A stretch of DNA of 64,000 bases from Sialis fuliginosa (lineage: Eukaryota > Arthropoda > Insecta > Megaloptera > Sialidae): positions 34,546,267 to 34,610,266 of the forward strand of contig OY540809.1 of assembly GCA_961205875.1 (NCBI GenBank). The letters are read 5' to 3'. Numbering within the stretch: position 1 is the stretch's first letter; every line of letters begins with the position of its first letter. The position numbers were made by a program, and so were the translations under genes. Positions 43,373 to 47,267 of the stretch are shown here, piece after piece. The notes beneath the pieces were generated by a model that saw only the letters and a list, made by a program, of their open reading frames with translations, did no database searches and was not told where the DNA came from.

Positions 43373-46300
43373 ATGTCTACCGAAGAAACGTCAGCAGATC
43401 GCAACGTAGAAATATGGAAAATCAAAAAACTCATAAAGAGTTTAGAATTAGCTAGAGGGTATGTTTTCAGAATATTTTTTATATTATTTTAAATATACGT
43501 AAATTTTTAATAAAAAATGCATCTGTGTTACATTACAATGATTATAATTGTAATAAATTAGCAAATATATTTGTAAAAAATACAAAATTATCAATGCATA
43601 TTGTTCGATAGTATGTGTCAATTTTGCTTTGATCATGAATGAAGTTGCATTTAAAAATAATCAACATAAATCTGATATTGTGGATTATTGCAACATTAAA
43701 CTTACAAGCTAAGTAAATATGAATTTTAATCAAATTTAGTATAATCTTTTTTTAAATATCACGTCTGCGGGCATTTTATATTTATAGCACATTTACTTGA
43801 AAGCTATTTTCATAAAAAAATGTTATAGGAATGGAACCAGTATGATATCACTAATTATTCCACCAAAGGACCAAATTTCCCGTGTCAGTAAAATGTTAGC
43901 TGATGAATTTGGAACAGCGTCTAATATAAAATCTCGTGTGAATAGATTATCAGTGTTGGGTGCTATTACATCAGTACAACACAGATTAAAATTATACACA
44001 AAAGGTACTTACTCCTCTGATTAAAACTTTAAACAAAATCACATGTATTTTTATTTTTTCTAGTTCCACCAAATGGTTTAGTTATTTACTGTGGTACAAT
44101 CGTCACTGATGAAGGTAAAGAGAAGAAAGTCAACATTGATTTTGAACCATTTAAACCTATCAATACCTCTCTCTACTTATGCGACAATAAATTCCATACT
44201 GAAGCATTGACAGCTCTTTTGGCCGATGACAATAAGTTTGGTTTCATTGTGATGGATGGTAATGGCGCCTTGTTCGGAACCCTGCAAGGGAACACCCGAG
44301 AAGTTTTACACAAATTTACAGTAGATTTACCGAAGAAGCACGGTAGAGGAGGTCAGTCTGCTTTGCGTTTTGCCAGATTGCGTATGGAGAAGAGACACAA
44401 TTACGTTAGAAAAGTGGCCGAAGTAGCAACACAGCTGTTTATTACAAGTGATAAACCCAATATCGCTGGTCTTATTTTAGCTGGTAGTGCCGATTTCAAA
44501 ACAGAGCTTAGTCAGTCAGATATGTTTGATCATGTAAGTTGTTCAATGCTGCTTAATTAGTAAGTTTTATTTATTTATGATTTCGATTTCAGAGATTGCA
44601 ATCTAAAATAATAAAACTGGTAGATGTATCTTATGGTGGTGAAAATGGTTTCAATCAGGCCATCGAACTAGCAGCTGAATCACTTCAAAATGTAAAATTC
44701 ATCCAAGAAAAGAAACTAATTGGACGTTACTTTGACGAAATCAGTCAAGACACAGGCAAATATTGTTTTGGTGTAGAAGATACATTAAAAGGTTTAGAGC
44801 TGGGCTCTGTCGAAACACTGATTTGTTGGGAAAATTTAGACATTCAACGTTATGTGCTCAAAAATCACACGACAGGTGTCGAAACAGTATTGCACCTAAC
44901 GCCTGAACAAGAAAAAGATAAGACACATTTCACAGATAAAGAGGTAATTAAAATAAAAATTTGTTATTTTTTTAGGTTATATATTATATAATTTTTTTTG
45001 TTAAAAATATACTTGACTGATACCATTTAGTGATCAAATTACATAACATGGTTTGTATTTATTTTCAACTTGGTAGTTGCTGTTAAAATTTTGTTTACAA
45101 GAATTGTTAATTTTTAGAGTAATGTAATTATTATTTTAGATGGTAGTTTTTAAAGGGAGAGACCACTATTTTTCAGATTTACAATATAGTTTAAATGTAG
45201 TTGATTTATAATTAGGAAAAACATTTTTACATTAGATTGTTGTTTTCAGAGCGGGGTAGAACTGGAATTAGTGGAATGTCAGCCTCTTTTGGAATGGTTA
45301 GCGAACAATTATAAGAATTTTGGTACAACGCTAGAAATTATTACTGATAAATCTCAAGAAGGATCGCAGTTCGTCAGAGGGTTTGGTGGAATTGGAGGTG
45401 TGTATTACAATATTTATAAAATACTGAAAACATTTTTCATCGGTTAAAAAAGAACAATCAATAAAGTGAAATTTATAAATAAATAAGTTCACTTTTGTTA
45501 GTTTTCTACATTATTGAAGAGGGTACTTAAAAATTAATTTGAAATGTATCAAAAAATTAAAAGGATATAATCAAAATACATTACGTAACAAGCCAAATTA
45601 GGCTTTTGTCCTACAAATTGTTAGAACTAATTGGAAGAAATTCAAAATGTCTGTACAAATTTTGCCAAAGATTAGGGCTTCGAACCGTTGTTTTTTTTGT
45701 TTTGTTTTTGTTCCGGTTAGAGTAAAAAAAATTATCGGTTTGGTTTCGTTTTTCTGGTTTTTTCGGTTTTCGGTTCAGCTCCGAGTGATTAATTTTTTTA
45801 TTTTTTATTTGTATTAAAAATTTATTTTCTACCATAATTTAGAAAATTTTATGGTACTTGTATGATAGCCTTACTGAAGTGGGGAGTAAGATCATGCTAA
45901 CATGCATATTTTAACATGTACCGAACCGAAAAAATACGATATTTATTTTTCGGTTCGGTTCCAGTTTTCGTTCTGGTTCGAAGCCCTGGATTATATTAAC
46001 TCAAATTGATATTTTATATTTTTTCTCGATGAAATTTTACACATATTGTTGTTTTATGTTTGTGGTACTGTATCAGGTAATGAGATAAGTTAATTTATAA
46101 TGTATAATTTTATTTATCATGCTCTCGGATGTGGACAGGCATACTACGCTACAAAGTGGATTTTCAATCTCTTCAAGCCGACGAGCCTCTGGACGATGTT
46201 GACCTTGATGATTACTAAAGGTTAACACGTTCCATGCTCGCTTTACATCAGGTATCTGTGTTGTCATTGGTTTCAAATGCATTTCAAAATTTTTCTGTTG

Positions 46301-47267
46301 TTGAATGTGAGCATATAGCCTTTATTCATAAATTCTTTAAATTTTAATGATTTTAATATTTGAATATAAGTTTCATTCTTTTCACTTGTATCCATAAGTT
46401 AAGGGTTATGGAGAAAACATTAAATTGTATTTAGGAGTTGTGTTAAAATTAAATTAAATTCGTTTCTTTTTAGTTGTTTGTGAATAAGGCGAAATTTTTA
46501 TTTTGTGTGACATTTTTATGTATTTTTTTTAAAAATTAGTTGAACAGAAAGGCTTAATTAAATTATTGAAAATTATTTTTTAGAACCGTTTATAGCTTAT
46601 TGTGTTTATTTTTTGTTTTCAGTGAAATTAAGTTATGATATTTTATTAATATTTTGAATTGCTGTTATTCTTTTAGTGATTTATTTTTTTGAAAGAATTT
46701 TTTCATCATAACTGTATTTGACTGTGTTTAAAGCTTCTATTTTTTTAGTTAAGTATTTTTATAAATATGTCCTCTCACTTGCATTTTATGTTATTTTTGT
46801 TTTATATGTTAGTTGTAAAATGATTGCATTGTAAGTGAAAGTGTTACATGTATTGATGAGAATTTTGTTAATTATTTTTAGCTATTATTATTTTGTAGGT
46901 AAGAGGATAATGTTACAATTTAAGATGTAGATGGAATTCTGGATATCAATTATGTCTTTCGGCATATCATTTAATGTCATGTGATGAAACATTCACAAAA
47001 ATGTGATGAGAACATATAGAATTTTGAAATGTTTAGCAGAACAGAGAAAAAAAATATTTAACTGGATCGAGCCTGCAGGCTATAGTTTAGGAACTGCTGG
47101 TCTAGAGTTCCAATTACATCTAGAGATCACATGAACCTTACCAACTTTAAAAATTCTAATTGATTGATATTTCCATTACAGGTATATTACGTTACAAGGT
47201 GGATTTCCAAAGCATGCAGTTGGAAGATGATTTGGCAGATGATGTATATGATCTTGATGATTATTAG
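43373..47267 (+). CDS. eRF1: eukaryotic release factor 1, with two alternative last exons
   Basis: Exons 43373-43458, 43829-44004, 44064-44533, 44593-44943 and 45250-45397 are followed by either 46139-46218 (436 aa) or 47182-47267 (438 aa). Both fit the usual 437-aa length. eRF1 recognises all three stop codons in the ribosomal A site and, with eRF3, releases the peptide. All key motifs are intact: TASNIKS and YLCDNKF (stop-codon decoding, N domain), [11 protein letters not shown] (GGQ loop that triggers hydrolysis) and the acidic LDDY C-terminal end. The start [20 protein letters not shown] is conserved in eukaryotes. All introns have GT-AG ends in agreeing phases. Intron 5 contains a MITE. 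Its divergent neighbour is SERAC1. Confidence 0.95.
45672..45988. mobile_element. hAT-type MITE in eRF1 intron 5
   Basis: Begins tagggcttcgaaccg and ends cggttc...ggttcgaagccctg in inverted form. Same family as 50511-50858 and 63231-63600. The internal ttcggttcggtt tracts are characteristic. Confidence 0.75.
46139..46218 (+). other. eRF1: eRF1 alternative last exon, proximal (6a)
   Basis: Preceded by a usable acceptor (gatgtggacag), it continues exon 5 in phase as [25 protein letters not shown] and a TAA stop. ATTAAA at about 46419 could serve as a polyadenylation signal. It is more diverged from the animal consensus than the distal exon. Confidence 0.85.
47182..47267 (+). other. eRF1: eRF1 alternative last exon, distal (6b)
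   Basis: Preceded by tttccattacag, it reads [27 protein letters not shown] and a TAG stop. It is in the same phase as 6a and clearly homologous to it. The FQSM and YDLDDY features are nearer to the vertebrate protein, so this may be the ancestral exon. Two overlapping polyadenylation candidates follow at 47800-47815. Confidence 0.85.

What the first reader, a model, noticed from the sequence alone, without database searches (positions are those of the whole stretch)
46139..47267. Tandemly duplicated, mutually exclusive terminal exons of eRF1
Two exons about 1 kb apart both continue exon 5 of eRF1 in the same phase, both start [10 protein letters not shown], both end DLDDY plus a stop, and each has its own acceptor. 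They differ in the acidic tail between (QADEPLDDV against [12 protein letters not shown]). The C-terminal end of eRF1 lies close to the eRF3-binding region, so the choice of exon could tune termination or readthrough. The distal exon is closer to the vertebrate sequence.
Basis: partly seen in the sequence, partly recalled or inferred. Interest (0 to 1): 0.8.

Follow-up and report, generated by a model that had tools for sequence, protein, structure and literature searches.

The report
Insect eRF1 with two alternative tails
One insect gene for the protein that ends protein synthesis carries two alternative last exons, giving two versions of its flexible tail, and one of these tails is almost letter-for-letter the same in a mosquito, a bee and butterflies, which suggests that insects keep two release factors for a reason still to be tested.

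Summary
Confirmed. The window holds one intact eRF1 gene (five shared coding exons, 43373-45397) followed by two alternative terminal coding exons, 46139-46218 and 47182-47267, in the same phase, each with its own acceptor and stop; the proteins have 436 and 438 residues and differ only in the tail. No second eRF1 locus was found in the genome. In the stretches where both exons encode the same residues, silent sites are heavily diverged: an old duplication. The proximal tail looks the more constrained: its last 40 residues are identical in a mosquito and a bee record, against at most 85% for full-coverage distal hits. Isoform pairs that differ only in this exon already exist in databases for a mealybug, a mantis shrimp and a shrimp. 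A Drosophila splice variant, eRF1H, is reported to raise readthrough (original paper not held). 'Mutually exclusive' is better read as 'alternative last exons'.

The parts
43373..43458 (+). eRF1 coding exon 1 (from the ATG)
   Evidence: joined frame; protein match, residues 1-30
43829..44004 (+). eRF1 coding exon 2
44064..44533 (+). eRF1 coding exon 3 (rest of N domain, M domain with GGQ)
   Evidence: Pfam eRF1_1 and eRF1_2
44593..44943 (+). eRF1 coding exon 4
45250..45397 (+). eRF1 coding exon 5, the last shared exon; donor GAG|GTGTGT
46139..46218 (+). proximal alternative last exon, coding part with UAA stop; tail [25 protein letters not shown]; full isoform 436 aa
   Evidence: identical 40-residue end in Anopheles maculatus and Ceratina calcarata records
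47182..47267 (+). distal alternative last exon, coding part with UAG stop; tail [27 protein letters not shown]; full isoform 438 aa
46448..46486 (+). candidate proximal polyadenylation signal: ATTAAA at 46448 and 46453 followed by a T/GT-rich stretch; no AATAAA lies between 46219 and 47181
   Evidence: hexamer scan, sequence; inference only
47800..47835 (+). candidate distal polyadenylation signal: AATAAA at 47800 and 47810 (others at 47270, 47374, 47867) followed by a GT-rich stretch
   Evidence: hexamer scan, sequence; inference only
46249..46257 (+). donor-like site CAG|GTATCT after the proximal stop (7 of 9 to consensus); if used, the proximal exon would be internal
   Evidence: inference only

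Best explanation
A single eRF1 gene whose last coding exon was duplicated in tandem long ago. Pre-mRNA processing joins exon 5 either to the proximal exon, which ends there, or skips it to the distal exon. The two proteins share all of the N, M and folded C domains and the GGIGGILRY strand, and differ only in the flexible acidic tail; they also get different 3'UTRs. I think the choice sets, by cell type, how well eRF1 works with eRF3 (or another tail partner), and so how often stop codons are read through, with the proximal tail the specialised form kept by sequence-specific selection and the distal tail the ordinary eRF1 tail. Shown here: the anatomy, the lack of a second locus, the old duplication, and close conservation of the proximal tail in some insects of three orders. 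Inferred: that both mRNAs are made in this insect (about 0.9), that the choice is regulated (about 0.6), that it tunes termination (about 0.4).
For: Both frames intact, same phase; silent sites diverged where residues agree; no second locus. Proximal 40-residue end 100% identical in Anopheles maculatus (P0122, a 418-residue model) and Ceratina calcarata isoform X1 (P0017), 98% in Parnassius and Euphydryas, while full-coverage hits to the distal end reach at most 85%. Core identity 0.96 over 10 pairs (window plus one Diptera, one Hymenoptera, two Lepidoptera) against 0.67 for a like set of distal tails. Same-species isoform pairs with 0 differences before the tail: Planococcus citri X1/X2, Oratosquilla oratoria X1/X2, Penaeus vannamei X1/X2 (3 of the 9 pairs compared). 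Human residues 414-437 are the flexible tail (abstract of PMC2909394); the swapped exon begins at residue 412, and numbering agrees up to 417. Yeast tail mutants are reported unable to recognise one of the stop codons (passage of PMC2909394). Drosophila eRF1H, a tissue-specific splice variant, is reported to raise readthrough (passage of PMC8788465); PMC10093890 speaks of eRF1 splice variants in the same sense (passage).
Against: No RNA reads here. GILRY, DLDDY and the acidic character are the same in both tails (7 of 16 and 8 of 18 acidic core residues), so eRF3 binding could be equal. PMC2613156 (passage) holds that composition matters more than sequence in this region. I could not read the eRF1H paper and do not know that eRF1H differs at the last exon. 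The proximal relatives were found with the window's own proximal tail as query, which favours close ones; the fly Diamesa has a looser proximal-like tail (11 of 17 core columns), and with all tails that I assigned the means are 0.75 and 0.59. No proximal-type tail was seen among the named beetle, cockroach and leafhopper hits (4, 1 and 1 named), though hits are 90%-cluster representatives. The Planococcus and crustacean pairs do not sort cleanly into the two types (Planococcus X2 is alike in 7 of 16 core columns), so they may be separate duplications. The one structure prediction was too poor to use.
Confidence: 0.55

Rival explanations
1. The exon choice is really a 3'UTR swap: the two tails work alike and what matters is the different 3'UTR (stability, localisation, microRNA sites), the protein change being tolerated.
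For: Both tails keep [15 protein letters not shown] and a similar acidic content; distal tails drift (0.67 mean core identity over 10 pairs); each exon has polyadenylation-like hexamers downstream.
Against: The proximal peptide is kept at 0.96 identity over 10 pairs, more than a tail carried along by a UTR would need.
Confidence: 0.22
2. The proximal exon is not terminal but a stop-carrying internal exon, spliced on to the distal exon, which then serves as 3'UTR; it may lower eRF1 output by feeding decay, an autoregulatory loop.
For: Donor-like CAG|GTATCT at 46252, ATT|GTAAGT at 46831 and TAG|GTAAGA at 46899; no AATAAA between the exons, only ATTAAA and weaker hexamers.
Against: The stop would lie 33 bases before the 46252 junction, closer than the usual 50-55-base rule for junction-triggered decay (recalled; in insects junctions are thought to matter less, recalled). 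Close conservation of the amino acids argues that the product is used.
Confidence: 0.15
3. The proximal exon is a decayed or unused duplicate.
For: The proximal acceptor has a poor pyrimidine tract (8 of 17, against 10 of 17 for the distal).
Against: Intact frame, splice site and stop, the same 40-residue end in a mosquito and a bee record. Exon 2 of this same gene has a poorer tract (7 of 17).
Confidence: 0.03
4. Assembly error: two haplotype or paralogue copies of the last exon placed side by side in one locus.
For: None found.
Against: Only one set of shared exons was found (6 matches above threshold, all in this gene, 9 of 9 candidates scored); in 45390-48200 the only direct repeat of 15 bases or more that joins the two exons is 18 bases at their coding ends; the same split point is seen in isoform pairs of other species.
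Confidence: 0.02

Closest known systems
Drosophila melanogaster eRF1H splice variant (Karki et al., NAR 2022; not read; seen only through passages of PMC8788465, and PMC10093890)
   Same: A splice form of the same gene, tissue-specific, reported to raise readthrough of leaky stops
   Different: I could not learn which exon distinguishes eRF1H; readthrough, tissue use and RNA are untested in this insect
Annotated arthropod eRF1 isoform pairs (Planococcus citri X1/X2, Oratosquilla oratoria X1/X2, Penaeus vannamei X1/X2)
   Same: 0 differences up to ...GGIGG, then two different acidic tails, i.e. the same split point as here
   Different: Their tails do not sort cleanly as proximal or distal type; may be independent duplications
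Tandem duplicated, mutually exclusive exons (for example Dscam and muscle myosin heavy chain in arthropods; PMC3236188, PMC2257972, abstracts in the search listing)
   Same: Adjacent homologous exons, same phase, similar length
   Different: Here the exons are terminal, so exclusion needs no special splicing mechanism
Human ETF1 isoform 2 (PMC11277123, abstract in the listing and passages)
   Same: Alternative splicing gives a second eRF1 isoform
   Different: It is shorter by 33 residues (that they are lost at the N terminus is recalled); it does not swap tails

Membership tests
eRF1 (class 1 eukaryotic release factor) | eRF1 domains, NIKS, YxCxxxF and GGQ motifs, GILRY | tested here: met
   Pfam eRF1_1 and eRF1_2 on the exon-3 frame; the 438-aa protein matches the human eRF1 chain 1dt9_A over residues 2-438 at E 2.7e-248; TASNIKS, YLCDNKF, GGQ and GGILRY are in the sequence (motif roles in passages of PMC11277123, PMC4065248, and PMC2613156)
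eRF1 (class 1 eukaryotic release factor) | Binds eRF3 and releases peptide at stop codons | not testable with these tools
   needs biochemistry
Tandem duplicated alternative exons | Adjacent, homologous, same phase, similar length | tested here: met
   80 and 86 bases to the end of the stop, same phase, 20 of 27 aligned columns alike
Tandem duplicated alternative exons | Spliced in a mutually exclusive way | not testable with these tools
   no RNA data; donor-like sites leave joint inclusion possible
Alternative last exons | Each exon has an acceptor and a stop | tested here: met
Alternative last exons | Each exon has its own polyadenylation site | tested here: inconclusive
   distal AATAAA several times; proximal only ATTAAA and weaker hexamers; no 3'-end reads
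Orthologue of Drosophila eRF1H | Same alternative exon as eRF1H | not tested
   original paper not held; no hit named as a Drosophila protein in the 120-row lists (many rows are unnamed)

The most novel reading that the evidence does not exclude
The proximal tail is not a generic acidic tail but a fixed docking peptide ([16 protein letters not shown]) for a partner that only some cells use, so insects and perhaps all hexapods keep two biochemically distinct release factors from one gene, and splicing between them is a global switch for stop-codon readthrough older than the split of flies, bees and butterflies. A springtail with two divergent eRF1 proteins, one bearing a near-proximal tail and one not, would fit if both jobs are needed.
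Probability: 0.2. Interest if true: 0.8.

Novelty: new member of a known kind. Interest (0 to 1): 0.52.

Why it matters
eRF1 is usually treated as one invariant protein with a sloppy acidic tail. A second tail kept almost letter for letter in insects of different orders, made by choice of last exon, would give a simple genetic handle on why readthrough is high in some tissues (reported for fly brain) and low in others, and would make tail function testable by deleting one exon.

Tried and rejected
One search covered the genome with the proximal exon in the wrong frame (the translation shows it); superseded. An AlphaFold model of a proximal-type eRF1 (Euphydryas P0011 with 21 relatives, alignment A1) came out poor (mean pLDDT 46.3) and was not used, so the flexible-tail statement rests on PMC2909394. 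One scan of viral contigs for insect eRF1 found no relative (7 stretches matched a pattern, 0 confirmed). The Rfam scan of the window gave 0 matches at the gathering scores. A 42-codon open frame after the proximal UAA was considered as a readthrough extension; 1.8% of 5,500 nearby positions are as open and no relative was at hand, so it is not claimed. The silent-against-replacement test was run only on blocks chosen for equal residues, so its p-value is not used as evidence of selection. The tails are too short for a tree; types were assigned by pairwise score or by eye. Rows dropped before the counts: I chose 9 proximal-type and 11 distal-type tails (window included in each) out of 218 readable tails of 219 listed hits; the 0.96 against 0.67 figures use 5 of each; with all 9 and 11 the means are 0.75 and 0.59. 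Tribolium X1 and Planococcus X1 were put in the distal set by eye although their score leans slightly to proximal (+4, +5); neither is in the sets of 5. Literature searches that might have shown an earlier description of paired last exons of insect eRF1: open-licence PMC only; I saw none in their listings, but listings are capped and most subscription papers are not held, so this is no proof of absence.

Full report
What is there. The plus strand carries a complete eRF1 gene. Five coding exons (43373-43458, 43829-44004, 44064-44533, 44593-44943, 45250-45397) can be joined either to 46139-46218 or to 47182-47267; both give full proteins without a stop, 436 and 438 residues. The junction falls inside the glycine codon of GGIG-G-ILRY, so both exons take over at the same phase-1 point. 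In the whole genome (392,097,322 bases, 20 contigs) the 438-residue protein finds 6 matches above threshold, 9 of 9 candidates scored, all in this gene; the proximal exon is not among these 6. The 25-residue proximal peptide finds itself (E 1.5e-9) and the distal exon (E 0.028) and nothing else, 2 of 2 candidates. So this looks like one gene, not two.

Are both exons real? In the 16 aligned codons that give the same residues, 8 codons differ and each difference leaves the residue unchanged: synonymous differences 8.0 of 10.7 sites; one serine pair (TCT/AGC) needs replacement steps on its way (2.0 of 37.3 sites). I chose these blocks because their residues agree, so the test cannot prove selection; it does show that silent sites are near saturation, hence an old duplication. 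The only direct repeat of 15 bases or more that joins the two exons is 18 bases at their coding ends. Splice sites are ordinary for this gene: the proximal acceptor has 8 pyrimidines of 17, the distal 10, and the acceptors of exons 2 to 5 have 7 to 14; exon 5 has the only GTG donor of the five, a weak donor, as is often seen at alternative exons (recalled).

Relatives. Three protein searches listed 120 hits each: 7,994 of 7,994 candidates under E 0.001 with the full distal isoform, 991 of 1,071 with the last 40 residues of the proximal isoform, 611 of 728 with the last 41 of the distal. The 219 distinct proteins listed gave 218 readable tails, 132 distinct. Ten of the 218 have a proximal core identical to the window's or differing at one or two of 16 positions: Anopheles maculatus, Ceratina calcarata, five Parnassius mnemosyne models with one tail, Euphydryas editha, one of two Iphiclides podalirius proteins, and one of two from the springtail Orchesella cincta (strings; identities computed for six of them, the other four being the same string as one of these). 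Ceratina's model carries an extra in-frame stretch further up that looks like a kept intron, and the Anopheles model has only 418 residues, so these records are imperfect, but their tails are complete.

The unexpected part. The search with the proximal end has two hits at 100% over all 40 residues and six more at 98%; the search with the distal end has no full-coverage hit above 85%. In a set of 5 (window, one Diptera, one Hymenoptera, two Lepidoptera) the 16-residue proximal core averages 0.96 identity over 10 pairs; in a set of 5 distal cores (window, one Diptera, two Hymenoptera, one Lepidoptera) 0.67 over 10 pairs. Against this: the proximal relatives were fished with the window's own tail; the fly Diamesa has a looser proximal-like tail (11 of 17 columns); and if all tails that I assigned are used the means are 0.75 (9 tails) and 0.59 (11 tails). 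PMC2613156 (passage) states that the eRF1 region after GFGGIGGILRY is poorly aligned and acidic, and that composition seems to matter more than sequence. The distal tail follows that rule; the proximal tail, in these insects, does not. This is the finding that I would put forward, rather than distal likeness to vertebrates, which is 15 of 27 against 14 of 26 columns.

Paired tails elsewhere. Of nine protein pairs compared, three same-species isoform pairs have 0 differences before the tail and two tails after the same glycine: Planococcus citri X1/X2, Oratosquilla oratoria X1/X2, Penaeus vannamei X1/X2; in each pair the longest contig has the same length, as expected for one locus. These are database models, so somebody's pipeline already has them. 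Orchesella cincta has two proteins with 36 differences before the tail and 8 in it, hence two genes or very different alleles; its second tail is not clearly distal (score -1). The other five pairs, two of them between species, have tails with 0 to 3 differences. Whether the scale-insect and crustacean pairs descend from the same duplication is open: their tails score between the two types. The named beetles (Tribolium, Leptinotarsa, Rhamnusium, Aromia), cockroach (Diploptera) and leafhopper (Macrosteles) show no proximal-type tail; five of the six score distal and Tribolium slightly proximal (+4). Because hits are representatives of 90% clusters, absence of a second isoform there means little.

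How it may work. The swapped stretch begins at residue 412; in human eRF1 residues 414-437 are among the most flexible parts (abstract of PMC2909394), and three deposited eRF1 chains (3j5y, 3jag, 6xa1) stop at or one residue after the position aligned to 420. [quoted passage not shown] 1998 in a reference list); yeast tail mutants, among them Q415X and E428Q, are reported to affect stop recognition (passage of PMC2909394). In Drosophila a tissue-specific eRF1 splice variant, eRF1H, is reported to increase readthrough and offered as an explanation for high readthrough in brain (passage of PMC8788465; a review, PMC10093890, speaks of eRF1 splice variants in the same sense, passage). I could not read the original and do not know whether eRF1H is a last-exon variant. 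The step from two tails to tuned termination is therefore an inference at about 0.4. The two exons also give two 3'UTRs; distal AATAAA at 47270, 47374, 47800, 47810, 47867, proximal only ATTAAA at 46419, 46448, 46453, 46557 and weaker forms, so a UTR effect is the main rival. A third reading, a stop-carrying internal exon, is kept open by donor-like sites at 46252, 46831 and 46899.

Novelty. Splice variants of Drosophila eRF1 and readthrough control by one of them are in print; paired tails are in public gene models. Not seen in the open-licence library with the searches listed under Tried and rejected: a description of the duplicated last exon, its age, or the letter-by-letter constraint on one tail. 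I file it as a new member of a known kind, with an unusual conservation pattern worth a direct test.

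Noticed in passing
window 46219-46344, + strand: 42 codons stay open in frame after the proximal UAA; 1.8% of 5,500 nearby positions are as open. Weak hint of a readthrough extension, or chance.
   Followed up: partly
window 41044-42433, - strand: Open frames on the opposite strand just upstream, head to head with eRF1; by eye SERAC1-like (recalled), but the 41885-42433 frame has no Pfam match and the other was not submitted.
   Followed up: partly
window 26694-28067 and 29130-30521, - strand: Two neighbouring leucyl-aminopeptidase-like open frames; Peptidase_M17 confirmed for the second (E 1.3e-103), the first not submitted.
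   Followed up: partly
window 13829-15007, + strand: 392-codon open frame with DUF4817 and a DDE_3 match below its cut-off (21.4 against 28.6 bits): looks like a transposase gene.
   Followed up: partly
window 62034-62444, - strand: Open frame with a Snf7 (ESCRT-III) match just below its cut-off (23 against 27.3 bits).
   Followed up: partly
window 45670-45990 and 50510-50860: Intron 5 and a stretch 5 kb downstream carry what looks like the same CGGTTCGG-rich repeat in opposite orientation, seen by eye.
   Followed up: no
G000 (own genome): Exact (TTAGG)5 occurs 2,537 times forward and 3,660 reverse (overlapping counts), 0 in the backward control: the usual insect telomere repeat (recalled), also scattered inside contig C1.
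   Followed up: no
Orchesella cincta P0025 and P0042; Iphiclides podalirius P0032 and P0035: Two divergent eRF1 proteins in one species: in the springtail one has a near-proximal tail and the other does not; in the swallowtail both have proximal-like tails.
   Followed up: partly
P0015, P0017, P0033, P0100: Several insect eRF1 gene models carry an in-frame insert after KLYTK, at the place of a short intron here; probably annotation error, possibly intron retention.
   Followed up: no
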